Below are positions 3 through 49,300 of a stretch of 64,000 bases of DNA, piece after piece. The position numbers and the translations under genes were made by a program. Position 1 is the first letter of the stretch. The number at the start of each line of letters is the position of its first letter. The notes beneath the pieces are model-generated. The model worked only from the letters and a program-made list of their open reading frames with translations, had not been told where the DNA came from and made no database searches. The stretch covers positions 1 through 64,000 of the IMG/VR virus record IMGVR_UViG_3300027749_000095. One strand, given 5' to 3'. The stretch comes from a virus.

Positions 3-410
3 TCTACAGGATTGCCAGGATACACAACAGATGTGTGGCAAGGTATGGGACCATCTGATGATATAAATCAAATTGAAGACCTAACTCAAATTATCAGTAT
101 TGCTAAGAAGCAAGGTATAGAGGAAGGGGATAGCGGCGCTAAGTATCGAGTAAAAAGTATAGGTCGGGATGCCAAAGGTGATTATTATATCAGTCCAAGC
201 ACAGAAAAGAAAGTCTACAAAAGCGGTGTAAACAAGGGTGATCATGAGAACCCTAACACTGGTGAAATTAAAAAGAAAGTAGCAGAGGCAGGTCGAGAAG
301 GTAAAGACCTTGACAAGATTAGAGACAAGTATAACAAATATGACGAAGCTGCCAATCCTGCACAACAGGCAGCTATAGCTATTGCAAAGAAAAAAGCAGG
401 TAAGAAATAA
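3..410 (+). CDS. Partial conserved phage protein, C-terminal part
   Basis: The reading frame is open to the left edge of the window, so this is the C-terminal part of a longer protein; the first usable internal start is a TTG at 12, which has no convincing ribosome binding site. About 135 residues are visible. They are hydrophilic, rich in Lys, Gly and Asp, and end in an Ala/Lys-rich tail (PAQQAAIAIAKKKAGKK) of a kind I recall at the C-termini of phage structural or scaffold-like proteins. There is no enzymatic motif, signal peptide or membrane segment. Its stop codon overlaps the Dps start (TAATG), so the two are probably co-translated. Function is not recognised. Confidence 0.6.
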   Translation, partial: STGLPGYTTDVWQGMGPSDDINQIEDLTQIISIAKKQGIEEGDSGAKYRVKSIGRDAKGDYYISPSTEKKVYKSGVNKGDHENPNTGEIKKKVAEAGREGKDLDKIRDKYNKYDEAANPAQQAAIAIAKKKAGKK

Positions 411-847
411 TGGACGAGCTTAAAAAAGCATTGAAAATTGCGTTTGCCAGTGAATATGCATTTGCTATTAAAGCACAAAACTTTCACTGGAACGTTGAAG
501 GACCATTGTTTCCGCAACTACACGCATTGTTTGATAGCATTTACAGTGAAGTGTATGATAGCATTGACGGATTTGCAGAAAACATTCGCAAGCTAGGATC
601 ATATACTCCTGCTAGCTTTGAACGTTTTTCAATGCTAACACAAATTGAAGATGAATTAAATATGCTTGAAGATAGAGCTATGATTGCAGAGCTACTGCAA
701 GATAGTGATAAAATGGTTAAATTATTAAAAATAGTGTATGATGCTGCAGAGGCAGCTGGCGAACACGGATTAAGTAACTTTTTAGCAGAACGCATGGATG
801 CACACCGCAAACATAGTTGGATGTTAAGGGCTACATCAAAACAATAA
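410..847 (+). CDS. dps: Dps-family ferritin-like protein
   Basis: Dps proteins form 12-subunit shells that oxidise Fe(II) with H2O2 and store iron, and some bind DNA. The 145-residue sequence has the family signature FHWNVEGPLF near the N-terminus. The ferroxidase ligands are complete: His26, His38, Asp53 and Glu57, with the same spacing (12, 15, 4) as His51, His63, Asp78 and Glu82 of E. coli Dps. It is slightly shorter than E. coli Dps (167 aa) and lacks the Lys-rich N-terminal DNA-binding tail, so it is more likely a peroxide/iron detoxifying cage than a nucleoid compactor (inference). It starts at ATG 410, overlapping the upstream stop by one base. A structured non-coding stretch follows it. 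Confidence 0.9.
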   Translation: MDELKKALKIAFASEYAFAIKAQNFHWNVEGPLFPQLHALFDSIYSEVYDSIDGFAENIRKLGSYTPASFERFSMLTQIEDELNMLEDRAMIAELLQDSDKMVKLLKIVYDAAEAAGEHGLSNFLAERMDAHRKHSWMLRATSKQ

Positions 848-850
848 GAA

Positions 851-930
851 CACACCTTAGGACCGGTAATTCGTTACCGTAAGTGTGGGGAGGCTGCTGC
901 CCTAGACGGCCCAATTCGCTACTGGGAATC
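851..930 (+). other. Structured intergenic RNA element (candidate)
   Basis: The gap between dps and the next gene can fold strongly. A first hairpin spans 851-887: CACA pairs with TGTG, CTTA with TAAG, and CGGTAA with TTACCG around a TTCG tetraloop (870-873), with a GGAC bulge on the 5' side. Two weaker stem-loops follow (GGC-TGCT-GCC near 892-901 and CCCA/TGGG at 910-925). No U-tract follows, so it is not a classic intrinsic terminator, and no tRNA cloverleaf can be drawn. It could stabilise the 3' end of the dps message or be a processing site or small RNA; the function is unknown. Confidence 0.35.
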
Positions 931-944
931 TTAAAGTGAGCACT

Positions 945-952
945 GATAAATA
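945..952 (+). promoter_or_regulatory. Putative T4-type late promoter GATAAATA
   Basis: GATAAATA lies 24 bases before the ATG at 977 and is followed by a good ribosome binding site (TTGGAGA). It resembles the T4 late consensus TATAAATA read by gp55-containing polymerase, and gp55 is encoded at 60281. The same TAAATA core precedes several virion genes on the minus strand at similar distances. Confidence 0.5.
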
Positions 953-976
953 CATTACAGAATTTGGAGAATAAAG

Positions 977-2128
977 ATGGACTTACGAGCACTAATGCAA
1001 AAGCTAGAAACAATTAATACTACACAACCTCTAACTGAGTCTGTAGAAAAACGTGTAGTTATTACTGAATCAGTAGCAACTCCTAATCGAAGGATCGAAG
1101 AACCTACTTTTAAGAGTTCAATTGCACGTGGTCTAGTTGAAGAATTTGGATATGAATTAGACGAAGAACAAGTTAGTGAAGTTGCATTTACTCCTGAACA
1201 ACAGGCAAAAATGGGGAAAGCTAATCCACAAGATCCGTACATTGTAGCTAGAGTACTGGGCAAAGATGCTGTACCATTAAGTCACTTTACTGATCCCGAA
1301 GATCAAAAAATTGCCAAACAGATGGGATTTAAGGATGGTCCGGCGGCGCCCGCTGTTGCACCTGCACCCGCTGTTGCACCTGCGGCGGCAGTGACACGCG
1401 GCGGATTAGCAAAACCAGCGGCGCCAGCGGCGCCAGCGGCAGGAAATACACAAAACATGGGCGATGGTAGTCAACTTACTACTGATCCTAAGACAGGCGC
1501 AGTGGCAGCAACTGATAGCGAAGGTAACCCATATATTCCAGGAAGTAATCCAAATCTACCTAAAAACAAAACTACTACACAAGACATGGGTGACGGTAGC
1601 AAACTTACTACAGGACCTGGAGGTGTTGCAGCAACCAATAGCGACGGTACTCCGTATGTGCCCGGTAGCAATCCTAACCTTCCTCAGAATAAACCTGCAG
1701 CAGCATTACCGACTGGAACTGTTGCCCAAAATGCTGGAGAACTTCCCGGCGGTGCGGCAGCGGCAGCTAGCCAAGGTGGAACACCTCCAGCAGCTAGTAC
1801 AACTGGAAAACCTCCAGCAGGTGGTGCAGGTGGTGATGCAGCAGTGGCAGCTACCCGTGCAAAATTTAAAGCGTTAATGGATAAGTTAGAGAAGACAGGC
1901 GGAGTTACTGGGGCAGCACCAGCAGCTGGAGCATCTACTAAACCGGCAGCACCAGTTAGCGGCGCACAATCAGCAGGTCAATCAGCAGGTGGTGCTGTTC
2001 GAGACGCTGGTGCCGGAATTGCTAATTTTGCCAAAGGTGCTTATCAAGGCGTTACAGGTAAAGCAAATGAATCTGTATCGTTCGAAGACGACAAAACACT
2101 GTTAGCCATTAAGAACATTAGATATTAA
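977..2128 (+). CDS. Ala/Pro/Gly-rich repeat protein, probable virion-associated
   Basis: 383 residues. The first ~115 residues look folded (MDLRALMQKLETINTT, then an acidic stretch). The rest is low-complexity Ala/Pro/Gly sequence containing two tandem ~41-residue repeats at about 157-198 and 199-239, each built on MGDGSxLTT, a GVAAT-like stretch and PGSNPNLPxNK. The C-terminal ~20 residues are charged again. No catalytic motif, signal peptide or membrane span is evident. It is read from a probable late promoter, and the next gene starts 2 bases downstream. Such long flexible linkers suit a structural, decoration or scaffold role, but that is inference and I do not recognise a named family. 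Confidence 0.65.
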   Translation: MDLRALMQKLETINTTQPLTESVEKRVVITESVATPNRRIEEPTFKSSIARGLVEEFGYELDEEQVSEVAFTPEQQAKMGKANPQDPYIVARVLGKDAVPLSHFTDPEDQKIAKQMGFKDGPAAPAVAPAPAVAPAAAVTRGGLAKPAAPAAPAAGNTQNMGDGSQLTTDPKTGAVAATDSEGNPYIPGSNPNLPKNKTTTQDMGDGSKLTTGPGGVAATNSDGTPYVPGSNPNLPQNKPAAALPTGTVAQNAGELPGGAAAAASQGGTPPAASTTGKPPAGGAGGDAAVAATRAKFKALMDKLEKTGGVTGAAPAAGASTKPAAPVSGAQSAGQSAGGAVRDAGAGIANFAKGAYQGVTGKANESVSFEDDKTLLAIKNIRY

Positions 2129-3810: not shown

Positions 3811-4074
3811 ATGTCAACACGTATGTATGGGCCTGAAGAAAAGGCCAAGCTAGAACGACTTATTAACGAAGGCTCTACTGTTCTTCGTGAAATTGAAGAT
3901 CTTAAAGAAGGTCTCAAAGAAACCGTTAAAGCTGTTGCAGAAGAACTTGAAATCAAACCTAGCATTATCAATAAAGCCATTACTATTGCTCATAAGGACA
4001 ATTGGAAAGAACATGAACAAGCGTGGAATGATATTGAAATGATTTTAGGTGTTACCAATCGATTGCCTGAATGA
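3811..4074 (+). CDS. dsbA: DsbA-like double-stranded DNA-binding protein
   Basis: 87 residues, basic and acidic mixed helices with no Cys. The layout resembles T4 DsbA, a small dsDNA-binding protein that binds near late promoters: an N-terminal helical segment, then VKAVAEELEIKPSIINKAI and an HKDN motif. In T4 the corresponding region contains AKDELGV and a HKDN motif. T4 DsbA is 89 aa, matching in length. The name refers to double-strand binding, not the disulfide oxidoreductase. It has its own promoter and strong ribosome binding site. Its stop overlaps the next start (ATGAATGA), so the membrane protein is translationally coupled. Confidence 0.65.
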   Translation: MSTRMYGPEEKAKLERLINEGSTVLREIEDLKEGLKETVKAVAEELEIKPSIINKAITIAHKDNWKEHEQAWNDIEMILGVTNRLPE

Positions 4075-4437: not shown

Positions 4438-7101
4438 TTGTATGTAGATGCATTCTTTCAGCGCGATGCTGATATCGTTAAAATTGTAGAACGTGGTACT
4501 GATGGGAAACGAATATTCAAAGAGTTTCCAGTGCGCTACACATTCTATCACACTGACCCAAAAGGCAAGTTCCAGAGCATCTATGGAGAGCCATTAAGCA
4601 GGGTCGTCTGTAAAAACTCAAAAGACTTCCGTAAAGAACTATCCATTCATAATAACAAAAAGTTATATGAAGCCGATATTAATCCTATCTTTAGATGTCT
4701 CAGTGAAAACTATCTTAATCAAGAAGCCCCTAAACTTAATGTAGCGTTTTTCGACATTGAGGTGGACTTTGATCCAGAACGTGGATATGCAAGCCCAGAA
4801 GATGCTTTCATGCCCATTACTGCTATCTCAATCCACCTACAATGGTTAGACACATTAATTTGTTTAGCTGTACCCCCAAAGAAGATGAAGGTTGCAGAAG
4901 CCGAAGAGCTAGTTAAAGATTTGCCTAACACGCATATTTTTGATAATGAAGCAGACATGTTAGACACATTCCTAAACATTATTCAAGACGCAGATGTACT
5001 AAGCGGATGGAATAGCGAAGGCTTTGATATTCCGTATACTGTAAATCGTGTTACTAAAGTTCTAAGTAAAGATGATACACGTAGATTCTGCCTGTGGGAT
5101 CAATATCCTAAAAAGCGAGAGTACGAGAAATATGGAAAAGCGGCTGTTACTTATGATTTGGTTGGTCGTGTTCATCTGGACAGTCTCGAGTTGTACCGCA
5201 AGTACACCTATGAAGAACGTCACACCTACAGACTGGATGCAATTGGAGAGATGGAAGTAGGCGAAACTAAAACGCAGTATGAAGGTACGTTGGATCAACT
5301 ATACAACAATGACTTCCGTAAGTTTGTTATCTATAACAGACAGGATACTACCCTATTAGATAAGCTAGATAAGAAATTAAAGTTCATCGATCTATCCAAC
5401 ACACTAGCACATGAGTGTACTGTGTTGTTGCAAACCACTATGGGTGCTGTGGCTGTTACTGAACAGGCCATTATTAACGAAGCTCACAAACGTGGATTTC
5501 AAGTTCCTAATCGTCCAGTACGAGATGAAGAAGCCGATAACAGTGCCGCTGGTGCATATGTTGCTTATCCCAAAGAAGGAATTCATGACTGGATCGGTTC
5601 ATTGGACATTAACTCATTGTATCCGTCGGCTATTAGAGCTCTAAACATGGGTCCGGAAACTATTGTGGGTCAGTTGCGTCAAACAATGACACAGGAATAT
5701 ATCGATAACCTTGTGGCCAAGGGCAAATCATTTGCCTCTGCGTGGGAAGGTATGTTTGGATCACTTGAGTATACTGCGGTAATGGACAAAGAAGTTGGCA
5801 CTGAGATTACTATTGACTGGCAAGATGGAGCAGTTGATATCCTAAGTGCTGCCGAAGTATATCAACTTATATTTGACAGCAATCAACCGTTTATGTTAAG
5901 TGCCAATGGCACAATCTTTACATATCAAACAGAAGGTATTATTCCGGGACTGTTAAAGCGTTGGTATAGCGAACGTAAAGAGATGCAGGCCAAACTCAAA
6001 GATACAATTAAAGCTGGAAACAAGATCGAGGAAGAATACTGGGACAAACGTCAGTTAGTCAAGAAGATTAACCTTAACAGTTTGTATGGTGCTATCCTAA
6101 ATCCAGGTTGCAGATTCTTTGACAAGCGTATTGGACAGTCAACTACACTAACAGGTCGTGCAATTGCTCGTCATATGGCAGGTAAGGTTAATGAAATTAT
6201 TACCGGTGAAAACAGCCACACCGGAAAGGCAATTATTTATGGTGACACTGACTCTTGTTATTTTAGTGCTTTTCGCACTTTGCAGAAGGATATTGAAAAA
6301 GGATTAATTCCTTGGTCTAAAGAAAGTGTAGTACAACTATACGACCAAATTGGTGAAGAAGTTAACAAGACATTCCCACAGTTTATGTTAGACGCCTTTC
6401 ACTGTCCAACGACACGTGGGGAAGTTATTAAAGCTGGTCGTGAGTTAGTTGCAATTAAAGGCTTGTTTATTACTAAAAAACGTTATGCTGTTTTGTATTA
6501 TGACAAGGAAGGCAAGCGAAGTGATATTGATGGTAAGCCAGGTAAGATCAAGGCTATGGGCTTGGATCTGAAACGTAGTGATACGCCAGAATTTATTCAA
6601 AACTTCTTAAGTGATGTGTTGGAGAAAGTCTTAACTGGTACTACTGAACAAGAAGTATTGGACTTTATTACTGAATTCCGTACTAACTTTAAAATACGTC
6701 CAGGGTGGGAGAAAGGTAGCCCTAAACGTGCTAACAATATTTCGGCATATCGCGGCAAGGAAGAAAAAGCAGGCAAGACTAATATGCCCGGACATGTTCG
6801 AGCAAGTCTTAACTGGAATACACTAAAGCGTATGATGGACGACAAGTATTCAATGAGCGTCACTGACGGTGCCAAAGTAATCGTCTGCAAACTCAAAGAT
6901 AATCCACTGGGGTTTACTAGCGTAGCCTATCCAGTAGATGAGCTTAGACTGCCCCAGTGGTTTAAGGATTTGCCATTTAATCACGAAGAAATGGAACAGA
7001 CGATTATTGATAACAAATTAGATAACCTGATTGGTGTTCTAAATTGGGATATCAGATCAACCGAACAGACAAATACTTTCAATAAATTATTTGACTTCTG
7101 A
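4438..7101 (+). CDS. 43: Family B DNA polymerase, T4 gp43-like
   Basis: The replicative polymerase with 3'-5' proofreading exonuclease. It is 887 residues against 898 for T4 gp43. Exonuclease motifs: FFDIEVD (Asp106, Glu108), GWNSEGFDIPY and YNRQDTTLLDK. Polymerase motifs: A, DINSLYPS (Asp390); B, KKINLNSLYG (542-551); C, YGDTDS (Asp603, Asp605); then a KxY-type ITKKRYA. The start is TTG, chosen because it follows AGGAGA at good spacing and because the first residues align with the gp43 N-terminus; no in-frame ATG is available there. A hairpin over the ribosome binding site suggests autoregulated translation. The promoter for the clamp gene lies in its last codons. Confidence 0.97.
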   Translation: MYVDAFFQRDADIVKIVERGTDGKRIFKEFPVRYTFYHTDPKGKFQSIYGEPLSRVVCKNSKDFRKELSIHNNKKLYEADINPIFRCLSENYLNQEAPKLNVAFFDIEVDFDPERGYASPEDAFMPITAISIHLQWLDTLICLAVPPKKMKVAEAEELVKDLPNTHIFDNEADMLDTFLNIIQDADVLSGWNSEGFDIPYTVNRVTKVLSKDDTRRFCLWDQYPKKREYEKYGKAAVTYDLVGRVHLDSLELYRKYTYEERHTYRLDAIGEMEVGETKTQYEGTLDQLYNNDFRKFVIYNRQDTTLLDKLDKKLKFIDLSNTLAHECTVLLQTTMGAVAVTEQAIINEAHKRGFQVPNRPVRDEEADNSAAGAYVAYPKEGIHDWIGSLDINSLYPSAIRALNMGPETIVGQLRQTMTQEYIDNLVAKGKSFASAWEGMFGSLEYTAVMDKEVGTEITIDWQDGAVDILSAAEVYQLIFDSNQPFMLSANGTIFTYQTEGIIPGLLKRWYSERKEMQAKLKDTIKAGNKIEEEYWDKRQLVKKINLNSLYGAILNPGCRFFDKRIGQSTTLTGRAIARHMAGKVNEIITGENSHTGKAIIYGDTDSCYFSAFRTLQKDIEKGLIPWSKESVVQLYDQIGEEVNKTFPQFMLDAFHCPTTRGEVIKAGRELVAIKGLFITKKRYAVLYYDKEGKRSDIDGKPGKIKAMGLDLKRSDTPEFIQNFLSDVLEKVLTGTTEQEVLDFITEFRTNFKIRPGWEKGSPKRANNISAYRGKEEKAGKTNMPGHVRASLNWNTLKRMMDDKYSMSVTDGAKVIVCKLKDNPLGFTSVAYPVDELRLPQWFKDLPFNHEEMEQTIIDNKLDNLIGVLNWDIRSTEQTNTFNKLFDF

Positions 7102-7139: not shown

Positions 7140-7868
7140 ATGCAAGATATTTTAAAAGACCTCGTAGGTCATACACACAACCTGGGCTTTTTGCCACTAG
7201 TTAAAATTACCGGTGATAAAGACACTGTGATTGAATCTATGGCTGAAGACCGTAGTGTTATTCTCACTGGCAAAACACACAAGGCGGTAGATGAGTTTGA
7301 CTTCGTATTTGGTATGCCTAACTTAGACAAGTTAGCATTACATTTAAAGAATCCGGAATACAAAGAAGGTGCAACTATTGGTGTTGTTAAAGCACAAAGA
7401 AATGGCGTTGAAGTTCCAGTTGGATTACATTTTGAAAATGCTGCTAAGGATTTCATAAACGATTACCGTTTTATGAATAGTGACATTATCAACGAAAAAC
7501 TTAAATCAGTCAAGTTTAAGGGTGCAACATGGGATGTTGAATTTGAGCCTAGTGTTATAAGTATTCAACGACTGCGTTTGCAATCGGCAGCGCATACTGA
7601 ACAATCAACATTCCAAGTTAAAACAGAAAATGGTAACTTAGTTGTTTTCTTTGGTGATGCAAGTACACACGCAGGTTCATTTGTGTTACATGCTAATGTA
7701 GACGGCAAATTGAAACAAACATGGGCATGGCCTGTAAATCAAGTAATGGCAATTCTTGCACTTGATGGTGACAAGACTATGCGTATTGCAGATGCAGGCG
7801 CTATGCAAATTACAGTTGATTCAGGCCTTGCTGAATACAACTATATTTTACCGGCACAATCTAAATAA
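7140..7868 (+). CDS. 45: Sliding clamp, T4 gp45-like
   Basis: A ring-forming processivity factor that tethers the polymerase to DNA and in T4 also activates late transcription with gp33/gp55. It is 242 residues against 228 in T4. Gene order directly after gp43, the overall length, the opening segment (residues 1-15) and the repeated beta-rich halves with a C-terminal LAEYNYILPA support the call. Unlike enzymes it has no catalytic residues to check. It has its own sigma-70 promoter and ribosome binding site (AAAGGAA). The stop overlaps the dpdA start by one base (TAATG), so the DNA-modifying transglycosylase is translationally coupled to the clamp. Confidence 0.88.
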   Translation: MQDILKDLVGHTHNLGFLPLVKITGDKDTVIESMAEDRSVILTGKTHKAVDEFDFVFGMPNLDKLALHLKNPEYKEGATIGVVKAQRNGVEVPVGLHFENAAKDFINDYRFMNSDIINEKLKSVKFKGATWDVEFEPSVISIQRLRLQSAAHTEQSTFQVKTENGNLVVFFGDASTHAGSFVLHANVDGKLKQTWAWPVNQVMAILALDGDKTMRIADAGAMQITVDSGLAEYNYILPAQSK

Positions 7869-9547
7869 TGAATAAAAACCTGACTGCCAAGCAAAGCGAT
7901 TACGCCTACTTCTTGCCGGCCACATCAGGTTTCTACTCAACGTTCATAGGCAAGCAACGCTATGGAAATTATGTAGATCCTGCACGTATACCAGCAAGTT
8001 TAGCAAACGGTGTAGAAAGTCTCAATTATCTAAATCCAGATAAAGGTGCGTTCTACTTTAATCATTGCCTATACTCTGCAGGACACGCTAACTTAGATCT
8101 TACCAAACTAGATGAAACTGAGGACATGTTTCGTAATAGAGACCGAACAACAAGTTGGGTATTAGGTGACTCTGGTGGATTCCAGATCGGTAAAGGTGTA
8201 TGGGAAGGCGAGTGGCGTGACCCTACTGGTCCAGAAGTTGCTGCCATGTGGGCAGAAGTCAATGCTCGAGGTATTGAACTTGTACCACAACTGCATCCTA
8301 CTGGCGATCCCAAGACTGACAAGAATGGTAATCCAAAGTTTACCAAAGTAGATCATCCTAAGTTATATCAAGCAAGACTAGATGCCGCACAAAAAAAGCG
8401 CGAACAAGTGTTGGCTTGGATGGACACGCTTATGGACTACGGCATGGTACTTGATATTCCAGCATGGGTAGAACGTAGCCCTGCAGGACGTAAGGCCACT
8501 GGGATCACTTCATATGAACAAGCAGTTGAAGCGACCAAATACAATAATGAATACTTTATTAAACATCGCACAGGTGCTTGTAAATTTTTGAATGTATTGC
8601 AAGGAGAAACACATAAACAAGCTGAAGATTGGTATCAATCAATGAAAGCGTTTTGTGATACTAAGATTTATGGCGACAAAGCATTTAATGGCTGGGGTAT
8701 GGGTGGCCAGAACATGTGTGATATTCACCTTGTGCTTCTACGTCTAGTGGCTCTGAGATTTGACGGATTGTTAGAACAGGGTCAACATGATTGGATGCAC
8801 TTCTTAGGCACATCAAAGTTAGAATGGGCTGTGTTGCTAACTGACATTCAACGTGCTGTTCGAAAGTATCATAATCCAAACTTTACTATTAGCTTTGACT
8901 GTGCAAGTCCGTTCTTGGCAACTGCCAATGGACAGATTTATATCAACACAGAAACTGAAGATCGTACTAAATGGGTTTATCGTATGCAGGCCAGTGCAGA
9001 TGATAAAAAGTATGCCACTGACAGCCGATTGTTTAAAGATGCAGTATTACAAGATAAGATATTTGAAAAGTTTGAATCAAGTCCCATTATTGATCAAATA
9101 CAGATGAAAGAAATTTGCATCTATGCTCCCGGCGACCTAAATAAAAATGGTAAAGAGGGTGCAACAAGTTGGGATTCATTTAGTTATGCACTAATGATGG
9201 GACACAATGTTTGGATGCACTTGAATGCAGTACAGGAAGCAAATCGGCAATATGATTCGGGTAAATTACCATCAATGTTAGTTGACGAACGCTTTGATAG
9301 AGTGTACTATAAAGATATTGTAGAAGCTATATTTTCATGTGATAACCGAGATGATGCTAATGCTATTATTGAACACTACAGCAGATATTGGATGACCATT
9401 ATCGGTACACGTGGTGCTACTGGAAAGAAAACTGTTAATGCGGCAACTATGGCAAATGAACATTTTGAAATAGAAGTTAACTTGACTGTGGACAAAGTAG
9501 TTAAAGAAGACCCTAAAGAAAATAACTTTATGGATTTGTTTGAATAA
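7868..9547 (+). CDS. dpdA: DpdA-like DNA guanine transglycosylase
   Basis: A TGT-superfamily enzyme expected to swap guanine in DNA for a 7-deazaguanine base, altering phage DNA so that host restriction enzymes cut it less well. 559 residues. TGT hallmarks are present: GDSGGFQ with the acid/base Asp101; NVLQGE (242-247), equivalent to the TGT xxVQGG loop; GWGMGGQ (275-281); LGTS (313-316); and SFDCASPF with the expected nucleophile Asp344, matching the FDC(V/L)xP motif. The CxCxxC zinc site of tRNA TGTs is not visible. FolE, QueE and a QueD-like protein encoded nearby provide the precursor pathway. It starts on the last base of the clamp stop codon. Confidence 0.88.
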   Translation: MNKNLTAKQSDYAYFLPATSGFYSTFIGKQRYGNYVDPARIPASLANGVESLNYLNPDKGAFYFNHCLYSAGHANLDLTKLDETEDMFRNRDRTTSWVLGDSGGFQIGKGVWEGEWRDPTGPEVAAMWAEVNARGIELVPQLHPTGDPKTDKNGNPKFTKVDHPKLYQARLDAAQKKREQVLAWMDTLMDYGMVLDIPAWVERSPAGRKATGITSYEQAVEATKYNNEYFIKHRTGACKFLNVLQGETHKQAEDWYQSMKAFCDTKIYGDKAFNGWGMGGQNMCDIHLVLLRLVALRFDGLLEQGQHDWMHFLGTSKLEWAVLLTDIQRAVRKYHNPNFTISFDCASPFLATANGQIYINTETEDRTKWVYRMQASADDKKYATDSRLFKDAVLQDKIFEKFESSPIIDQIQMKEICIYAPGDLNKNGKEGATSWDSFSYALMMGHNVWMHLNAVQEANRQYDSGKLPSMLVDERFDRVYYKDIVEAIFSCDNRDDANAIIEHYSRYWMTIIGTRGATGKKTVNAATMANEHFEIEVNLTVDKVVKEDPKENNFMDLFE

Positions 9548-16235: not shown

Positions 16236-16817
16236 ATGCAAATTCACGGATGGTTTCCTCGCCCTATTTGTGTTGTAGACAACGTATTATTGCACGAGTT
16301 AGGAACATTTGAAAATAGAACTAAAGAGCTTGTAAATCAAAGTTTCTATAGAAATATAGTATTAAGTGTAAATTCTACACACCCTACTAATAATACTCTA
16401 CATCTTGATCCTATTTTTAAACCGCTAGTAAGTATGATATATTCAACAGCTAGAGAATTTATGCAAGAAATAGGATATTATCAATTTTTAAATTCTCTTA
16501 AAATAAATTCAATGTGGACTAATGTTAGCCAGGAAGGTGATTTCCTTTATCCACACATTCATGGTTCAAGTTTACTTTCAGGTGTATATTATATTAAAGC
16601 GCCCATTGACAGTAAAATTAAGTTTTTCAACAACATAACAGATATGGTTCACCCTGCAAGTAACCCAACCCCGTTTACACAATCATATTGTGAGTACGAA
16701 TGTGACCCAGGTAGACTTATCATGTTTAGAAGTGATTTCCTCCACGGCACAGGAAAACAATCTGCCGGAGAGAAAATTGTAATTTCATTTAATATGGGTA
16801 CAGGAATATATGAGTAA
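16236..16817 (+). CDS. 2OG-Fe(II) oxygenase-like protein
   Basis: 193 residues. It follows the phage/TIGR02466-like oxygenase pattern: WTNVSQEGDFLYPHIHG with iron ligands His107 and His109, SLLSGVYYI, and a distal FRSDFLHGTGKQ with His170, then EKIVISFN whose Lys180 sits where the 2-oxoglutarate-binding basic residue is expected. Such enzymes hydroxylate proteins, nucleobases or small molecules. T4-like phages often carry them with unknown substrate. It overlaps the queE start by 8 bases, so it is translationally linked to the deazaguanine pathway; hydroxylation of the modified base is an attractive but unproven idea. Confidence 0.8.
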   Translation: MQIHGWFPRPICVVDNVLLHELGTFENRTKELVNQSFYRNIVLSVNSTHPTNNTLHLDPIFKPLVSMIYSTAREFMQEIGYYQFLNSLKINSMWTNVSQEGDFLYPHIHGSSLLSGVYYIKAPIDSKIKFFNNITDMVHPASNPTPFTQSYCEYECDPGRLIMFRSDFLHGTGKQSAGEKIVISFNMGTGIYE

Positions 16818-17661
16818 AATTAAAATTGCAGAGCTGTTTTACAGCATTCAAGGCGAAGGACGCTATATGGGTGTTCCGAGTGTGTTTCTACGCACATTCG
16901 GATGTAACTTTAAATGTGCAGGATTTGGCATGCCACGAGGAGAACTAAGTACAGAAGTTGAAACTATTTCTTTTGCTCATGACAATACTCCTTACAAGGA
17001 CTATAAAGATTTGCCGCTTGTTAGCACAGGGTGTGATAGTTATGCTAGTTGGGATCCACGTTTCAAAGACCTAAGCCCAATGCTTACAAGTGAAGCAATT
17101 GTAGATCGCATCATGGAAATTATTCCACATAGCGAATGGCATGACGAACATCTAGTAATTACGGGTGGTGAGCCATTGCTAGGTTGGCAACGTGCTTATC
17201 CTGACTTGCTAAACAATCCTAAAATGAAGGCGTTAAAAGAGATTACGTTTGAAACAAACGGTACTCAAAAACTTACACCGGAGTTTAAAGAATATCTGAG
17301 GAAGTGGAATAGTGTAGTAGGCAAGGAACTTACATTTTCAGTAAGTGCTAAACTTCCGGCAAGTGGTGAGAAGTGGAAAGAAGCCATTTGTCCAGAAGTA
17401 GTGTGTGAATACGAACAAGTGGGCACAGCATATTTAAAATTTGTAGTGGCAACAGAGCAGGATATTGCAGATGCCGAATGTGCTGTGGGTGCATTTTGTT
17501 CTGCAGGATTTAAAGGCCATGTGTACTTGATGCCGGTGGGTGGTGTGGAAAGTGTTTATACACTCAACGCAAAGAATGTGGCACTAGCAGCCATGAAGCG
17601 CGGATGGCGTTATAGTGACCGTTTACAAGTGCCGTTATTTAAAAATGAGTGGGGAACTTAA
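16810..17661 (+). CDS. queE: QueE-like 7-carboxy-7-deazaguanine synthase (radical SAM)
   Basis: Radical SAM enzyme making 7-carboxy-7-deazaguanine from 6-carboxytetrahydropterin. 283 residues. QueE hallmarks: ELFYSIQGEGRYMGVPSVF at the N-terminus, LVITGGEPLL (the GGEP SAM motif), FETNGT and a C-terminal domain with SVSAKL. Unusually, the cluster motif is split: Cys32 and Cys36 keep the CxxxC spacing, but the position of the third Cys is Phe39, and the third Cys with the CDxYASW context occurs at Cys75, after a 38-residue insert (CX3CX38C). An expanded cluster loop is known in Burkholderia QueE (CX14CX2C). It ends on the next start (TAATG). Confidence 0.9.
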   Translation: MSKIKIAELFYSIQGEGRYMGVPSVFLRTFGCNFKCAGFGMPRGELSTEVETISFAHDNTPYKDYKDLPLVSTGCDSYASWDPRFKDLSPMLTSEAIVDRIMEIIPHSEWHDEHLVITGGEPLLGWQRAYPDLLNNPKMKALKEITFETNGTQKLTPEFKEYLRKWNSVVGKELTFSVSAKLPASGEKWKEAICPEVVCEYEQVGTAYLKFVVATEQDIADAECAVGAFCSAGFKGHVYLMPVGGVESVYTLNAKNVALAAMKRGWRYSDRLQVPLFKNEWGT

Positions 17662-37355: not shown

Positions 37356-37363
37356 TATTTATC
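37356..37363 (-). promoter_or_regulatory. Putative late promoter GATAAATA
   Basis: On the minus strand GATAAATA overlaps the stop codon of the giant gene and lies 20 bases before the ATG at 37335. It is identical in sequence to the plus-strand motif at 945-952. Confidence 0.55.
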
Positions 37364-40300
37364 GTGGCCAAACAGTTGTGTTTTCCTTCAAGAAATTCGC
37401 GATCTTATTATCGGAATTTGCCAAACTCTTACCTGCATCGCCCCATTCTTTGCCTATTTTCTTAACAATAACCACTTTAGTATTGTCGGCGGCAGCAGTA
37501 GTTAACGTGACGCTATTATCTATTCCACCTATACTAAATTCTGCAGGGAAAGTACTGTCCCCTTCTAAACTGTATGGCTGATCATTTAGTTCTTCAAACA
37601 GACTATATGCAACTTTCTTTAGCTTATATCCGCCCACGAACACATCAACTTCGTTTGTATTTTCTGGAATGTATGTTAAGTTGCCCACCTCTGTAGTAAC
37701 TCCATCACTAACTACTGTATCAACAATAATTTGGTCAGTGTACGGTATTGTTTCAGTTGGGCCGATGTCCTGGACTACTTCTCCTACAATATGTACTGTA
37801 GGGGTTCCTGTTCCTAATGTGCCTCGTCTCAATTGACCTAAAACATTTCCAACTTTAGTAAAGTATTCAATACGTTCACCGTTAATTTCAATAATACCGG
37901 GCAAGTTTAATACAGGATTAGGTACAGAAAATATTGATCCGTCTACTACAGTAATTTCAATATCAGATTGTATTAATTCAACAGCTAGTATTGATGCTTT
38001 GTCTGCACGTAAACGCTTGTAGTGTACTCGATTTAACATGTCTTTAAACTGCATAAATCCAAATGTCGTCCGTATAACGTTGTCAGTAAACAACATTACT
38101 TGAACTACATCTGTATCTTCTAGTGAATCTTTTAATTTAACAGTTATTCGATCATTTTCTACAACATAATCAACACTATGTGTTAGTAACGTGCCGTTTT
38201 TAATAATCCATACAAAATCATCTGATACAGCAGGGCGGCGTAGAGTAAAATATCCGCCTAGCTTGTTGGTAAATTCATAATAATCAGTTGTGCCTGGAGT
38301 TAATGTAGCTGATGGAACAAATATATCAGTAGTCCTATCTATATCTAATAGCATATGATTATAGAATGTAACTATTTCTAACTCAGTAGATACAGGATAG
38401 ATATCAGTAAACTCAATTGTTCCTGCATCCGTTATTGTATAATCTGAAGATAAGTCAACTACTACTGCAAGTTTATCTCCTGCAACATACGATGCTTGAG
38501 AAATGTTAATTGTAATTCCAAACAAATCAACAACATATCCCATACCCTGTTCTAACTTATTTGAAGCAGAATATACTCTAATATCAGTAGCGTTAATTGT
38601 GTATGTTGCAAATTTATGTGAAGGAATTGCATACGACAATACATTGTCTGCCATTGTGAAATATATTACTGTCGGTGGACGTAATATTTCTTGTCCTTTA
38701 CGCACAATTACATTTGTTTCGTATGGCTGTAACCCGCTGCCTGGTAATAAGTTAGGGCTTAAATTATCTAAATCATAAATTGTAGTAGAGCCGTCTGTTG
38801 TAATAGTCTGACTCTTTACTACGCTAGCCGTCTGTATAGTTGTGCTAGTATCTATCATATAGTTAATAAGTGCGTTTAATGTCACCGGAGCGCCAAATCG
38901 AATTCCTGTCCTATTAGGGCTACTGTATGTAGAATCAGTTCTAAATAGTTCGTAGCTAATTACTAATCCATTAACTAATACTGTAGAACTTAGTCCCGAA
39001 TCAATCCACGGAGCACGGGTAACGTATTCAGTAGTAGTGCCGTCGGCGATAAAATAATCTAAATCTAAAATATTATCACTATTGAATCCGACACTTATTA
39101 TACTTACTATTGAATTATCTATTGGTGCAAGATCAAATATCACAGAATTAGACGGCCAGTCAATAGTATAAGCTGTCTGTTCAATTACAATATTTCCAAC
39201 TTTAACAATTACTGCCCTTTCAGTTGCAAAGTTTTGTCCCACAACAAAAGTGGTGTTTATGCCGTTGCCTACATAGTTCTTAAACAAAATATTAGGAGCA
39301 CCACTTGCTGGTCTATGGAACACTTTAATTGCTAACGCATCTGTTACATGCCCTGGCACAATCTCCTCCGGAGCGTGGCTTGTTGTTGCTGTGACAAAAT
39401 CGTCGCCATCAATATTAATATCTGCAGGGGCATATCCAGTAGCAGTTGTTAAGACCGATCCGTTAAATGCACCGCCTTGCAGTTGCGTGTCGTATTCATT
39501 TGGTTGCGGAAGAACACTTCCGTCACTTGTGCTTCTACGGAATACAACTTTATCACCGGCAGCAATAGTCAAATATGTGTTGGGTATAGTAAATATTTCG
39601 GTTGATCCGTTGCCCTCAATTGGCAACATTACTACATTCGGCTTACCTGCCATTGGATATGTTATAAAATCAGGATCGTCAATGCGATTACCGTTAACAT
39701 ATATGTTAACTATTTCAGCAACTGCCGGAGCATATTGTAAATCATATGTGTAAACTCCGGCGCCTGCTGTAAAGATTCTATCATCAAATGCAGAGTCAAA
39801 TCCATCCCAACTATCGCTAAACCACGGAAGCGCATCCCATCCGCCAGTTGCGCCAAATCCCATTCCTTGTAATTGAACTCCGTCGTAATCAATTCCGCGC
39901 ATTAACTGCGCAAGATCTTTTCCTAGCATACCACTTGATGGCTCATAGAAGAAATTAATTCTGTCAGCTGCTGACATATGTTCAAAATTCTTTTCGTAGG
40001 TGATCCTAATAGTTTCACCCACATTAGGTGCTGTGTCTAATTTTAACAAGCCCGAATAGCTAGTGTATCCTCTGCTTGTAGATTTTTTAGTGGTTAATGC
40101 ATATTCGCCGCGTAAAATATCAATGCCGGTTACCCCCGGTGCATCAGGATCAATGCCCACTGGATATAACTTAATAGATGCTGATCCAATTTCTATTCTA
40201 GGACTCCACTTTAACGCAAACTGTACACGAGATCCAGTACCAGTAAATGTTTCAGTTTCAGTTTTTTCGCTAATATAATACGCACGAGTTATTCTATCAA

Positions 40301-43300
40301 ACTTGATAGTAATTTTATTAGATCTAACCACTTCACTTTCAATTATTGCCACTACAGTTGCAGGAGTGCCACCTTCTGATAATCCGCCATCAATTGTAAT
40401 TATTGGGGCTTTAAGATACCCTGTGCCTCCAGAAACTATATTAATACGGTTAACTTTACCATTGGAAATATATGCCTTGGCCATTGCGCCTGTACCAAAT
40501 CCTCCGTCTATCCTAACTACAGGTTGATTAATATATCCACTGCCGCCGTCAAATATTTCTATTGACTGAATAGTGAATCCCACATGGTCATACCAATGTT
40601 TCCACGGGTACGCAAGAATGTCACTCGAAGTTGCATTAATACTTCCATCGTTACTAACTGTTACACTCATCGGAGTAATTGTTAACTTATTAGTAACTAG
40701 TGGAATTAAGTCAAAGTCAGTAGTTGACTGTCTAGCATAATCTGTTTTATTGTATAAGCTAACATACTCTCTAATTTTTGTTCTATAAGGTTTTACTTCA
40801 TTTATATAATCTTCAAAATTAGACAAATTATCGTTATTATACGTAACTTTTTCTTTTAGTTCACCAACATTGTGAGTTGCTTTTACAAAGCTAGTTTTAA
40901 ATGCCCAGTCAATAAAAATTTGTTCGTGCAATACATAACGTAAACTAGAGAAGAACAATTTTAAATATTCTACTCGTAGATCATCTACAAAGATTTTATC
41001 TTTAATAGCAGTAATAATGATTCGCAATTCTGCTGCTGCAAAATTATCATATAATGATGCATCAAATAGTTGATTATCAAATCCTATCGACGAGTTAACA
41101 AACGTATATATACTGCTTGAGAGTTGAATGGTTCCATTTTGTCTACCGACTACTTTGTAGTTTTGTGTGTAATCGATAGTTGTTAAATCATTATATTTTT
41201 CCAATAGTAGCCAACCGCCGGTGCCAATATTTTTTACCTTTACTATATTTCCAATATTTGCAGATAAAGTTACAAGATAATATGTGTTATCAACTAAGTG
41301 ATCAATTTTTGTAAACTGTGTATATCCGGTAGCATACCAATCAGTATAATTCCAAAATTTTGTTACATCATACGACTGACTTCTTGATCTGTCCCACACC
41401 TTATCTTTACTATTCCATGCATATATACTCCACTTGTTAAAAGAATTAGTGTCGCTTAATACTAATACAGAATACGGTCTAATTGACAAGATAGTATCGT
41501 CAAAGTATCCGCGACCTTGATTTTGTATTTTAACAGAAACAATTCTACCGACAGCATCTAATACTGCTGTTAATATTGCACCAACGCCCGAACTGCTAAT
41601 TTTAATCAAAGGAGGATTGTTATATCCGTATCCGGGATTATCTATTAATACATCAGTTATAATTCCATTTTCAGTAACAGCAGTTAATCTTGCTTGAACT
41701 AATGTTGCTGTACCGATAAATTTTAACTCAGTCTCAAAATCTATTGTAGTATCCCATAATCCAGAAACTGTAGATGGTAAGGGGTCAGATAGCAGTAGAT
41801 CACTTAGGTCAAACTCGTCAACAATTAAATTTTCCAGTAGTACATAATTTACATGTTCTATGTATTGCTTTAGAGCTTCAACTCGATTGATAAACATTCC
41901 TTGACGTGGTCTAAATTCAGTCCCGTATCTATTTTTTACTGGCAGGTTAGTATCAGGTACTACTCGATCGTTACTATCTTTTCCAATCAAACTATCTATC
42001 CATTTATTTTCAATATTCTTAGGAATAGTAGTATTACCGTGCTCGCTTATAATTTTCCACTGACTGTGTAGATTAATTTCGTGATTGTCAATCAACCATG
42101 TTTGGAAATTCAATACTACATCAGTTCCCTGAACAGTTTTGTTAACATTAACTAAGCTAAAGCTATTTACGCCTGTTGGTGCAACACATGTGTACCCGTA
42201 TCCGATAGGGTCAGCAATTAATTTAGAAACATTGTCAGCTGACAATGTTCTTCCTGCAACATTAGGTGTTACTGTTTTATTCTTAACCCAGAAATAATAT
42301 GTCGGAATTAATTTTTGCCCCACAGTATCATACTTGTTCTTAACACTATAACTTGCGTCTCCGTACCGGCTTGTGCCACTGATGCCAGTGACTAACCCCT
42401 TAACAGTGTCGGCTAATTTGTCCCATTCACTTGGCAAATATTTTGTTTCAACCCATTCGTAAATGTCAATACTGGCAGTTTTATATAACTTATTCCATGT
42501 TGTTGATCTGTATACAACTTCACCGCCTTGATTATCTAAAAACTTAGCACGAGTCAAATCCCACCACAACATACCTATTTGATTTTTAGTCCAGTTTAGT
42601 CCGCTATCGACATTAACGGAAGCAGATCCTATAGAATATGTTGCGGGGTCAAAGTATGTTTTATATCTAATTTCTTGATCGGCTGGTCCAGGGATCTTTC
42701 CTTGTATTGGGTCAACTACATCAAGATATGTTACTATACTGTTAGTTACTCTGTTATATAGATACGCTTTTTTAACATTAGAAATATTTGGTCTTGGTTG
42801 TTCTTGATAGTATAGTTCCCAGGAAGTAGACGTAGCAGCCTTTGAGTAAGAATATACTGCTCCCACTAATAAATTGTCTCTAGGTGCGCCAACTAAGATA
42901 GTGTCCTTACCTGCTGCAATTGATGCCCCGTAGCCGTTGCCGTTTACTGCAACAATATCAGCATCAAGACTTTCACCATACAAGAATTTAGAACCATACA
43001 TATCATACACGTCAATTCGACCAGTATCTACTTGTTTATTAACTATTCTAAGAGTGTTGTTATCAAATGTAGTTGGAGAATTTCGAAGCGGCGATGCAGG
43101 ATCATTAATATATCTACTACCATGAACTGCTTCGGCGCCTTCTAATAACCTTGTATAAACGTCCACAGTCCCTATTCTGTTTAAGTCGCCACGTTTTGCA
43201 AGTACTACTAATGTAGTATCATTGTTAGTAAAGTATACTGCGGCTCCAAACTGCTCTCCTCGTTCTTTTGCGGGACTCACAATACTTTGATATAAAGTGT

Positions 43301-46300
43301 ACTGTGTAGGATCAAGCGTATAAATGTACACTGCTCCTTGGTCAACTTCTGTTACATCAACTAATGAACTGCCAATTGCAATATAATCAGCAGACTGAGA
43401 TATTGCTATACTTTCGCCGAATCTGTTACCTATAGCACCTGATAAGGTATCAAACAAATCATATCCAGTTTCACCTATTTGATATACATATACATCACCT
43501 GCACTATCATTTGCAATTGGTGCGGCTGCAACAAACATGTTTCCGGTAGCAGATATTGCAATATTATATACATCAATTATCGGCAATGCAGTTACATAAT
43601 TAGCCCATGTTCCTGTTGTTACTTGATAAAAATATACTTTATCAAGAGCCGATATTGCTAAAATATAAGTGTTGCCATTTTTAGCAAATGCTAATTTAGA
43701 TCCAAACAGCTCGTCGTCATCCGGAGTTTGACTAATAATATACTCAACAAAAACATACCCTGTGCCGGGAGTATTATAATAAAGAGAAACATATCCTTGA
43801 TTGTCTAATCCGCTACTATCAACATTAGATGCATACGGAGCAGCAATAGCTAACCATTTGCCATCGGCAGATAGTGCAGATTCAGAGCCAAACTCTTGGG
43901 CTGCTATATCAGCAATTGAGGTATCTATTACTATTGATTGATTTTGAATCCAGTTATATGTGGTAGAGGTAGAATAATATTTTTCAAAGATAATTACTTG
44001 ATCTGCATCGGTAACTATTGCCGTTATTCCCGATTGTGATAATGTTACTTTCTTTCCAAAATTTAAACCAGTAATATCTGGAACTGTGGCAAGGTCAATT
44101 TTAGAAACACCATACACTTTAGTATTTTCATACACTCCCCAATTACCGTTACCGGAATCTTTTGCCCACAGTAATTCACCAGGTTTGATAACTGTCGGTA
44201 AGTTGTCGTTTGCATTTTCAATATTATCAAACAAGCACGGTAGGAACTGATACAGTGAGATTTGTGTGCTATCAACCGGTGCTTCCCATCCTGCAACTGT
44301 CACTTTAATATTAATAGTACGCAATTCTACCGAATACACCGAATGGAACCCTTTGACTAACTCATTGTTTTCAATGCCCAGTATGTCGCCGGGTGTGATG
44401 TTGGGAATCCTATCACATGTAATAGACAAAACGCCAGCTGCATACGTTACGTCTTCTACATTAAACACACTATTAGTAAATCGATATACATTCCATTTTT
44501 CATTAAAGCTGTTTAACTTGTTTTCAAACGCACACCAAACATAATCGCCCTCGATAAACGTGCTAATGTCATATTGTACTGCATCACTTAACTCATCAAC
44601 ACTTAATTTTACATCGTCGTATCTAACAAATCCGGGAGTACGCAGATACTGTTTAGTGCCAGTCACAGTCCATATGTTGTTATTATAATCTAATGGTTTA
44701 ATATATACATCTGACGGACGTTGTCTATACACAAAATCTATCACTGTAGGATCAATGGCCGATACTAGCTCAACTGGCTGAGGATTAACTTTAAACTTTG
44801 ATTCGTCTAGCATAAATTCTGTTTCGGCAAATGCGGTAACTGCTCCGTAATCGCCAACACGTACTGCCCATTCTTCATTAAATGTTAAACTTTCCATGCC
44901 GTCAGCACTTAGTACATCAAATAATTTATTAAGCACATTTTGTGTGCCTTTCTCAATAATCATTCCTTGATAAAATTTATATTGACTTACATCGTCTTTA
45001 ATAATATTTTCAAGATACTGACGTTTCTGATATCCGATTAAATGTTGAGCAAATTTTTGTTGTTCAGCATCAAAGTTATCAGTGTCTAAATCATAGAAGT
45101 CGGTGAATTGTTCTGTTCTGTAATCCCAGTTAGCTACCATCTTTGATGTCGGCTTTTCTGCCAATATTGCCCAATCTGCCGCAGCAAATTGTTGTGCTCC
45201 TGGAAGAGTTGACAACGCTGAATAATAAAACTCTTTATATTTTACGATGTCGCCTAACTTATAATCAACCCACGGAGTCCAATCATTAATTTTAGCTTGG
45301 TCAAATATAAATCCGGGAATATTAAATCCGCCTTTCCAATTTTGACTAACATATCCAATAACTTTAATGCGCTCTTGTCGATATCCAGGCTCAAGGTCAT
45401 ATATTACATCATTAAACAATGTTGTATTATCTAAAATTAATGCATGTTCTTTCTGTATCATAAAAAATACAGCGCCATATATGCCGTGAGTTGTGTTAGA
45501 CGGGGTTATTGAAAACTCATTAGCTTCGGAATTTCTATATGTGTTAGTAAATTCGGGTTCTAATTTTTGACCGTCTACTCTAAATATTTTATATCCAAAG
45601 AAAGGATCTAGCAGATCGTTAACTACGCTGTTAGTAGTTACTATTGATAGTCTGTTTGCCGACGGACTTAAAGAAAGTACTGCGCCGGCTCCCCAGTTCT
45701 GAGTTGTCCAAAACATAAATTCTTTTACAGCAGTTTCCCAATTAGTAATAGATTTTAATTCTGTGTTAAAGTCGTTAAACACAAATCCCTGATCTGTTAA
45801 GTATGCTCCGTACCCTTGTAGGAAATCAACTACATCTTGTACCGTGGATAATTTTGTGCCGTATCCCAGAGTTAGTTTTGTTGTAATATCCCACGCTTTT
45901 CGAATATTTGCGTCACGACCTCCCGACACTGGGAGCCTTGCAAGTTTTGAAAACAGCGTACTATCAAATGTATCAGTAGCCGTATGAGTAATGTTTACCC
46001 TATAAAATTGATTATTATAATTTACAATGATTCCGGAGGCATATTGTTTTCCTGCCGACCATATAATATAACTGTCAGAAATACCCCCAACATTAATAGT
46101 TCTTCCCGAATCCATCCATGGATGGTAGTTAAAATACGGCTGTTCGTTGTAATACCCGGTAATTTCAAATCCGTCAGGATGTTTTGTAATAACCACGGCG
46201 CTATATACAACTTTTTTAACTGCTGAAGATGTGTTTAGAAAAACAGTGTAATTTTCTTCTGGAACAAACACCCCGCCTGTACTTGTAGGACTCTTGCTGT

Positions 46301-49300
46301 CTAATAATAATTTAAATTTACTCTTTGCAGTAAATCCGCCTAACTTGACTCCGAGATTATTAGTTAATGAATCTAAATCTGTTTGGTATTGGTTGATCAA
46401 TACACTTGTATCATTAGTCATAAAATCAATTATATAATTAATTAGACCAGATGTTAGTACCCTTGTTGAACTTAATGTTGTAGATGGCAGTACAATATCA
46501 GCAAGTCGAATGCGTAATCCTGTATCGGCATATACAAATTGTCCACTAAGGTTACGGACTATACGGCTTCGATCTAAACATGTTCCTAAAACTTTATTAG
46601 GTTGTAATAATAGGGCTGCTTGAATAACTGCAAACGGATAATGCCCCGAACGACGCCATGCTGATTCAACTGGGCCCACATCTCCGAATGTATAATATCC
46701 TTCAGCCGTAGGTTTAATTGTGCCGTTAACAAAATTAGCATCAACTGGGTTTTGCAAGTTGCCAGCATTGTCTACCGGAACTCCCTTTGCTAATATTGAT
46801 TTTGCAAATTTTTCCAAACGTCTAATAGGTCGGCCTGGTTCTTTAACTATGCCTTGACGAATATCATCCCACATGATTAAATTGTCGCTTGTATATGGAA
46901 TTGGTCCATATACTTCTTTCCACCATTTTGGTTGTATACTAAATCCTAAACATTCCCACGGATGAGTGTGTGGGCGATCGGTATCTAATACCCAACGGTA
47001 AATACCCCTCCAAAATGCAGGCACAGATACCCCGTCAGGGGTATAATTTCCACGATAATTAAATGTGAATGGATTTAGTCTGTCCCACCATTCGGCATTT
47101 TGTTTAGCATAATCCGTTCCAACATTAGTAGTCCACTGATAGAAAAATGTTCCCAATATGTCTTCAAACTCTTCTTTTGAATACGTAGTTACTCTATCAT
47201 ATCCAGGAATATGATCATATATATTAAAAATAGTTGAATCGTACTGTACTTTAATATTATTAAAGATACGTTTTTCTAATTCTAATATTAAATCGTCGCG
47301 ATAGTCGCCGAACGCAATTGTTATACTACCGTCATGTCCTTGTATAACTTCTGTTGGTTCTGCATATGTTGTATCAATGAACTTTGAAGGGACAAACTTA
47401 GGATATAATCCTAATTTAGTAGGAGTTGCGGGACAGAATGATCCGTCAGTGCTTTCGTATTCTACAGCAACAATTGTATCGCCGTCGACTAAGTCTGTTA
47501 ATATTTCAAAAAATACGTCAGTGCCAAAAACATAATCAATGCCTTCAATAAGCTGCACTTCATTAAGATAAATGTTAACAGACTTATTAGATAATACTGT
47601 TAAATTAAATGCAGTTGTTAATGGATACACTTTCGTACGAGCATCAAGGACTGTATATTCAAGTAATGTAGATGCTGAGTAGCCATACATATCCGATAGA
47701 TAGTATGGTCGTGAAGTAGATTTATCTTTTGCTAATTCTGCTAATACAAAATCAACATGGCGTTGAGGATCAGTGTCAATCCCCAAACTTGACGCTGTTA
47801 CAATAAATGCTCTTTTAAATTTACTGTAATCATCTCTTGCTTGCTCAAGCGCCTTGAAAACGTTTGCGGTCGACGATCCAAGATGATATAAACTTAAATT
47901 CACTGGGCCGCTGTGCTGAATAAATCTTGTGCCGGACGGTGTAATATTTCCAATGTCCCGTAAATTACCGGTACCTGGGTATGTGCCGACAAATGTAGTA
48001 ATGTTATCTATTATTGAGTCCACGTGATCAATTACTTGACCCAATGTAAATTCAGATAGATTGTCATTCAGCGGATTATTTTGTAAATTAACTGGAATTT
48101 CATAATATCCGTTATCATTTTTTTGCTGTGCTGCTAAACATTTTAATGTTATAACGTCTGTAGTTGCAACGGCGGTTGTTAATAATACATATTTTCTAAT
48201 ATTACCAGTAGCAATAGTATACGCAGATCTAGCTAGTCGTTTTCCGTTAATATATACTCTAACTTCTAAATCATCTAAATCATCTACGTTAGAATAAACA
48301 TCAATAGGAAAATTATTAACTAGCCCACTTTCTTTAAAAATTCTAATAATAGGTTGTAAATGTGTTATTTCTGTAGTCTTCCAACCGTTAACATAATCAA
48401 AAACTGTTAAACTTGTTACAGACTTTAAAAACCCAACATCAGTTTTTTTAGTAATAATGTCAACTACGCTTTTGTAATTAAAGCTGTCTGATAGCAAAGT
48501 AAATTCAAACGCAATGTCACCAATGTTGTTTATATTCTGATAAGCTAAGGGAAATCCTAGTTCACTGTCGTTAGTGCCAGTTCCTAACTTATATGAAAAT
48601 ATTTTATTTCCGGTAAAGGTTGTTCCGTCATATACTAATGCATTTCCGTAGCTAGTGCCATCAGAATCAAATACGTCAAATAATGGCGATTGATTAACTA
48701 GTGTTTTCTTTTGCCCTAATTTCCATGCTGTGCCTGTGTACCAGTACATTAGTCCTTGATTGACTAACCCTTGCTCTACTAGTACAGTTTCATTTTCTAA
48801 AGGAATACTGTCAGCAGCTTCTACCAAGTTGATCTGACGGCGAGCGCCTGCAAACACTTCTAATTTGTGAACGTCGGAGCCTGTGGCAAAAATGTCTGCG
48901 GTTACTGTTAAGTTTTTGTCGACATATAATTTAATTTGTGTTGAATTAACTACCGATACGTAATATGCTTTTCTGTTAGTTAACCCAGAGATACTAGTGT
49001 TGCCATTGTTAAGATACAGTACCTGATTACCAGTTGTTAGCCCGTGGCCGATCTCACCAGTTAGCGTATTAATTTCAATAGTGATAATATCGGTTATAGG
49101 ATCAATTCCCAATAATGCATAAAATCCTATTTGTCTTCCGGGAACTGTAACATTAACAAAATTAATATCAAAAATTCTATCTTTTACTAATGAATCAGTA
49201 TCGGCAGCAAATAAAACCCTCATACCGCTAGCTAGATCTACTCCGTCAATATTGTATCCTAACTTGCCTTCAATTGAGGAAAATGCATCTGTTGTAAATG

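What the first reader, a model, noticed from the sequence alone, without database searches (positions are those of the whole stretch)
410..847. Phage-encoded Dps with complete ferroxidase centre
His26, His38, Asp53, Glu57 match the spacing of the E. coli Dps ferroxidase ligands exactly. The DNA-binding tail is missing. It sits among late or structural-type genes, so it could protect the phage genome from iron and peroxide during late infection or be packaged.
Basis: partly seen in the sequence, partly recalled or inferred. Interest (0 to 1): 0.6.

Follow-up and report, generated by a model that had tools for sequence, protein, structure and literature searches.

The report
Late phage mini-ferritin (Dps)
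A lake-type virus of bacteria carries an intact-looking gene for Dps, a small iron-storing cage that disarms iron and peroxide; this is a widespread and partly known phage gene, apparently switched on late in infection in several relatives, and next to it lies a well-conserved structured RNA that the Rfam catalogue does not list.

Summary
ORF 410-847 (145 aa) is a genuine Dps mini-ferritin (Pfam Ferritin 7e-21; best solved relative P. aeruginosa Dps PA0962, 7e-25; AlphaFold model pLDDT 92, TM 0.91). His26/His38/Asp53/Glu57 have the PA0962 ligand spacing and are kept in all of about 350 viral relatives examined. Neither DNA-binding tail is present; net charge is -7. dN/dS is 0.05-0.11. Late expression is supported: the T4-type late-promoter core ATAAATA is the commonest 7-mer upstream of dps (56 of 139 sequences), and in about 20 loci of a T4-like lineage dps lies between the small and large terminase genes. 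Packaging in the virion is not shown. Best reading: a late-made, peroxide-dependent ferroxidase cage that removes Fe2+ and H2O2 while phage DNA is made and packaged. Ferritin/Dps genes in freshwater and gut phages were already reported, so this is a new member of a known kind. More novel is the adjacent ~90-nt RNA (849-942): strong covariation, usually one copy per phage record, absent from Rfam 15.

The parts
410..847 (+). dps gene: 145-aa tail-less Dps (mini-ferritin) with ferroxidase ligands H26, H38, D53, E57 and conserved W27
3..410 (+). 3' part of the preceding gene (family 8 in relatives, function unknown); its stop overlaps the dps start (TAATG), suggesting co-translation in one operon
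849..942 (+). conserved structured RNA element in the 3' untranslated region of dps: P1 around invariant CUUAGGACC, P2 hairpin with loop GGCUGCU, P3/P4 hairpin with loop AUUCGCUAC, tail AAAGUGAGCA pairing with the P2 loop; model match 844-942
945..953 (+). T4-type late-promoter core GATAAATAC for the next gene (starts 977)
977..2128 (+). next gene, Ala/Pro-rich protein of unknown function (family 28 in relatives, late promoter in 13/13)
3811..4074 (+). DsbA-like transcription regulator (PF11126), conserved downstream neighbour
4438..7101 (+). T4-family DNA polymerase, a few genes downstream of dps in most relatives

Best explanation
The gene makes a Dps-type 12-subunit cage that is produced late in infection. 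The four ligands, two from each of two neighbouring subunits, form di-iron sites that oxidise Fe2+ (by analogy with PA0962, preferably with H2O2) and store the ferric product inside. This removes free iron and peroxide together, so less hydroxyl radical forms while phage DNA is being replicated and packed and the infected cell is failing. It does not coat DNA through a tail, because both tails are missing. Shown here: family, fold, ligand conservation, purifying selection, late-type promoters and packaging-operon positions in relatives. Inferred: dodecamer, peroxide-dependent iron oxidation, and the benefit to the phage.
For: Family and fold. Ligands invariant in several diverged phage sets. 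dN/dS 0.05-0.11. Closest solved relative PA0962 oxidises Fe2+ with H2O2, not O2, protects cells from H2O2, and also lacks basic tails (PMC10002758). Late expression: ATAAATA upstream of dps in 74 of 191 loci, commonest 7-mer there, 56/139 distinct sequences, against about 0.01 expected per 60-nt window; the motif is strongly avoided inside this window, 6 seen vs 32.6 expected, the lowest of 21 same-composition 7-mers. In another T4-like lineage the order is gp14-gp15-gp16-dps-gp17.
Against: No expression, assembly or iron-oxidation data. The record starts 409 bases upstream of dps, so its own promoter is not seen. Other phage Dps genes sit among nucleotide-metabolism genes (Aeromonas, Salmonella, Proteus phages), so late timing is not general. 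PA0962 also cuts DNA in vitro (PMC10002758), which does not fit simple protection.
Confidence: 0.7

Rival explanations
1. Dps is carried in the virion: it is packaged in the head and protects the encapsidated genome or enters the next host with the DNA.
For: Late promoters; dps between the terminase genes in one lineage; viral structure-database hits where Dps-like folds occur in longer proteins, some named 'prohead protease'.
Against: No head-targeting-like N-terminal motif in any of 80 Dps, while neighbouring families carry one. No fusion to a head protein found in the loci examined. The database names are unverified.
Confidence: 0.12
2. Dps is an iron-supply store for phage or host iron proteins made in infection (for example iron-bearing tail tips or Fe-dependent enzymes), not mainly a protector.
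For: Mini-ferritins store iron (established knowledge of the family); late timing would fit tail assembly.
Against: PA0962, the closest solved relative, uses H2O2, the hallmark of detoxification; nothing in the neighbourhood links it to an iron enzyme.
Confidence: 0.1
3. Host-support reading: the phage Dps keeps the infected cell alive under environmental oxidative stress (light-made peroxide, grazers), as proposed for freshwater phages with ROS-defence genes.
For: PMC6802176 reports ROS-defence genes including ferritin in over 10% of freshwater phages; PMC8008677 for gut phages.
Against: Late-type expression in this lineage points to virion production rather than early host support. The two readings can overlap.
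Confidence: 0.25
4. Dps acts on DNA as a nuclease or condenser (host DNA breakdown, genome handling).
For: PA0962 cleaves plasmid DNA in vitro without tails; the gene lies in packaging operons in one lineage.
Against: Acidic protein (net -7), no tails, no known nuclease motif; the PA0962 activity has no known in vivo role that I found.
Confidence: 0.06

Closest known systems
Pseudomonas aeruginosa Dps (PA0962, PDB 8ff9)
   Same: Fold (TM 0.91, rmsd 1.2), same four ligands with the same spacing, no basic DNA-binding tails
   Different: 30% identity in the structural alignment; chromosomal stress protein, not a late phage gene
PHROG 3636 phage Dps-like proteins (e.g. Synechococcus phage S-SRM01; Aeromonas, Proteus, Salmonella and Cronobacter phages)
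   Same: Phage-encoded Dps; the S-SRM01 protein is full length and annotated as a DNA starvation protein
   Different: At most about 31% identity over the full length in isolates; several lie among nucleotide-metabolism genes
Dps of 'Gratiaviridae' and other gut phages (PMC8008677) and of Lactobacillus phages (PMC6669764)
   Same: Phage-borne ferritin-like enzymes proposed to fight oxidative damage
   Different: Other phage families and hosts; in the Lactobacillus phages placed near replication and repair genes
Freshwater phage ferritin/ROS-defence genes (PMC6802176)
   Same: Aquatic phages and the same proposed benefit
   Different: That work, in the part read, lists ferritin only in general; no promoter, operon or RNA context seen
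E. coli Dps
   Same: Ferroxidase ligand spacing (from memory)
   Different: E. coli Dps has a lysine-rich N-terminal tail that binds DNA; absent here

Membership tests
Dps (12-mer mini-ferritin) | Ferritin-like sequence family | tested here: met
   PF00210 7e-21, above cut-off; PHROG 3636; 53 PDB sequences matched, nearly all Dps. NCBIfam Dps models hit but below their equivalog cut-offs
Dps (12-mer mini-ferritin) | Four-helix bundle with a short helix in the BC loop and no fifth helix | tested here: met
   Model: helices 2-28, 34-61 (broken at 51), short 70-73, 88-115, 119-143; pLDDT 92; Foldseek top hits are Dps
Dps (12-mer mini-ferritin) | Inter-subunit ferroxidase ligands H, H, D, E | tested here: met
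   By sequence only: H26/H38/D53/E57, 193/193 viral relatives
Dps (12-mer mini-ferritin) | Dodecamer assembly | not testable with these tools
   Monomer model only
Dps (12-mer mini-ferritin) | Fe2+ oxidation with H2O2 | not testable with these tools
   Needs purified protein
DNA-binding Dps (E. coli type) | Lysine/arginine-rich N- or C-terminal tail | tested here: not met
   No tail at either end, net charge -7; the viral relatives examined lack one too
T4-type late gene | TATAAATA-like promoter upstream | tested here: inconclusive
   Met in many relatives; not visible for this copy because the record starts 409 bases upstream. In close relatives the nearest motif is about 1.8-2.8 kb upstream
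Known Rfam RNA (for element 849-942) | Match to any Rfam 15 family | tested here: not met
   No match at gathering threshold, only chance-level matches at relaxed threshold

The most novel reading that the evidence does not exclude
The dps transcript of this phage ends in a member of an undescribed family of structured phage RNAs (about 80-100 nt, three helices plus a probable pseudoknot), usually single-copy in large T4-like phages and lying between the dps operon and the DNA-polymerase operon, where it could act as a 3'-end or operon-boundary element or be released as a small RNA.
Probability: 0.7. Interest if true: 0.6.

Novelty: new member of a known kind. Interest (0 to 1): 0.45.

Why it matters
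Hundreds of aquatic phages keep a tail-less Dps with an intact ferroxidase centre. In several lineages it is tied to late promoters or to the DNA-packaging operon. That makes a clear, testable claim: iron and peroxide limit phage genome quality at the time of packaging. The neighbouring RNA would be a new class with strong covariation and a fixed place in the genomes of many large phages.

Tried and rejected
Near-DNA relatives of the first 25 kb of the window among sequenced phages: none. Dps fused to a head protein: the structure database lists such names, but none of the fetched viral loci showed a fusion; apparent N-terminal extensions in cyanophage loci are upstream open frames that look like translated tRNA genes (by eye). 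Six apparent losses of ligands were an artefact of one inserted residue. Single-sequence folding of the intergenic RNA gave no signal (z=0.08); covariation did. The RNA as an ordinary terminator: a T-run follows only some copies. Depletion of ATAAATA as a mere stop-codon effect: other A/T 7-mers containing TAA are not depleted to that degree, apart from the overlapping TAAATAA. Link of the RNA strictly to dps: not exclusive; 29 of 84 RNA-bearing stretches contain dps, though the stretches are short.

Full report
WHAT IS THERE. ORF 410-847 on the + strand encodes 145 residues. Its start overlaps the stop of the preceding gene (TAATG). It matches Pfam Ferritin (7e-21), PHROG 3636 (5e-27) and 53 PDB sequences, best P. 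aeruginosa Dps PA0962 (7e-25). The AlphaFold model built on 22 viral sequences has mean pLDDT 92 and superposes on PA0962 Dps with TM 0.91 and rmsd 1.2. H26, H38, D53 and E57 have the same spacing as PA0962 H37, H49, D64, E68.

CONSERVATION. All 193 window-like genes (144 distinct sequences) keep H, H, D, E; so do 80 cyanophage-type and 80 further genes, six of these with one extra residue between the ligands. The loci overlap between scans, so these are not all separate phages. dN/dS against close relatives is 0.05-0.11. In a tree with 80 bacterial relatives the window-type viral sequences form one group (SH-aLRT 99); the best bacterial identity is 43%. The placement of the isolate-phage sequences in that tree is unreliable (long branches). 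The viral relatives examined have no N- or C-terminal tail, and net charge is negative, so tail-based DNA binding is unlikely.

WHEN IT IS MADE. The window belongs to a T4-like phage (T4-family DNA polymerase; baseplate proteins). ATAAATA, the core of the T4 late promoter (from established knowledge), occurs 6 times in the window against 32.6 expected and is the most depleted of 21 same-composition 7-mers. Three of the six remaining copies lie about 20-40 bases upstream of ORF starts, including 946-952 before the gene at 977. Upstream of viral dps genes it is the commonest 7-mer (56 of 139 distinct sequences) and lies within 60 bases in 74 of 191 loci; about 1% would be expected from its overall density. 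Loci are related, so these are not independent counts. In the first set of 80 loci, 24% of dps genes have it against 9.4% of other + strand genes, and DNA polymerase genes rarely do (4 of 65). For the window's own copy the promoter is outside the record; in the closest relatives the nearest motif is about 1.8-2.8 kb upstream, before genes that precede dps.

WHERE IT LIES. In relatives of this phage dps is preceded by unknown, variable proteins, an endolysin, a cytidyltransferase-like protein and a Clp-type ATPase, and followed by unknown genes, a DsbA-like regulator and DNA polymerase. No structural gene is recognisable next to it in this window. In a separate T4-like lineage (L287, L288, L290-292, L308, L310, L317, L319-323, L330, L354-360) the order is neck protein gp14, tail-sheath stabiliser gp15, small terminase gp16, dps, large terminase gp17, often with overlapping or adjoining reading frames. 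Not every gene of the order is visible in every locus, because some loci are cut.

HOW IT MOST LIKELY WORKS. By analogy with PA0962, whose di-iron sites use H2O2 and not O2 and whose loss sensitises cells to peroxide (PMC10002758), the phage protein most likely forms a 12-mer that removes Fe2+ and H2O2 together, late in infection. That would limit damage to replicating and packaging phage DNA. The activity and the benefit are inferred. Packaging in the virion is possible but unsupported. Several neighbouring protein families share a short N-terminal motif resembling a T4 head-targeting sequence (resemblance from memory, function untested); no Dps has it.

WHAT IS KNOWN. Ferritin and Dps genes have been reported in freshwater phages (PMC6802176), gut phages (PMC8008677), Lactobacillus phages (PMC6669764) and a Campylobacter phage (PMC2853527). 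The Dps is thus a new member of a known kind. I found no report of the late-promoter link or of the gp16-dps-gp17 order, but the paper library is partial.

AN RNA NEXT DOOR. Just after the dps stop, 849-942, lies a conserved element. Forty-eight diverse copies align. For 15 base pairs, including a pseudoknot between the P2 loop and the 3' tail, the covariation score is 0.412 against at most 0.120 for slid controls, and 0 of 500 shuffles reach it. In 93 distinct copies the second pair of P2 is C-G 54 times and G-C 39 times, paired in 93 of 93. The pseudoknot itself hardly varies (one compensated change), so covariation supports it only weakly. A covariance model finds exactly one copy in 18 of 19 positive phage records and two in one, a copy in 39 of 50 sources searched (the window and 49 dps loci), always on the dps strand, and none in 12 bacterial genomes or five isolate phages. 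Many of the virus records may be fragments. In the dps loci it lies between genes or in their short overlaps, often starting within a few bases of the preceding stop codon (dps itself in 12 cases), and mostly upstream of the DNA-polymerase gene. Copies are followed by a late promoter, a TTGACA box or a T-run. It has no Rfam 15 match. A 3'-end or operon-boundary role is the simplest reading; a released small RNA is the alternative.

Noticed in passing
window 849-942 (+), and 93 distinct copies in other loci: Strongly covarying RNA element of about 80-100 nt with a probable pseudoknot, not in Rfam 15, usually single copy per phage record, lying between the dps operon and the DNA-polymerase region.
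   Followed up: partly
L287:652-5046 and about 19 similar loci: T4-like lineage with gene order gp14-gp15-gp16-dps-gp17: dps lies inside the DNA-packaging operon.
   Followed up: partly
neighbour proteins in relatives, e.g. L004:5021-6214, L006:4014-4379, L039:8576-8935: Several unrelated neighbouring proteins start with a common short motif (such as MKIFELFN, MILRELFE, MFIYELFE), resembling a head-targeting peptide; could mark injected or internal head proteins.
   Followed up: partly
window 7868-9547 and 16810-17661: Protein with a DSGGFQ motif, as in tRNA-guanine transglycosylases (no family match), and a QueE-like radical SAM protein; the phage may carry 7-deazaguanine-modified DNA.
   Followed up: no
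window 37359-50642 (-): One open frame of 4427 residues next to baseplate genes.
   Followed up: no
Foldseek BFVD hits A0A6J7XDU5, A0A6J7WIS1, A0A6J7WPK9: Uncultured phage proteins of 333-763 aa named 'prohead protease' that contain a Dps-like fold; possible Dps-head protein fusions, not recovered in the loci fetched.
   Followed up: partly
L006:179-1039 and L006:1057-3333 (also L004, L008, L009): A DnaJ-like protein (by eye) and a Clp-type ATPase lie together several genes upstream of dps in relatives.
   Followed up: no
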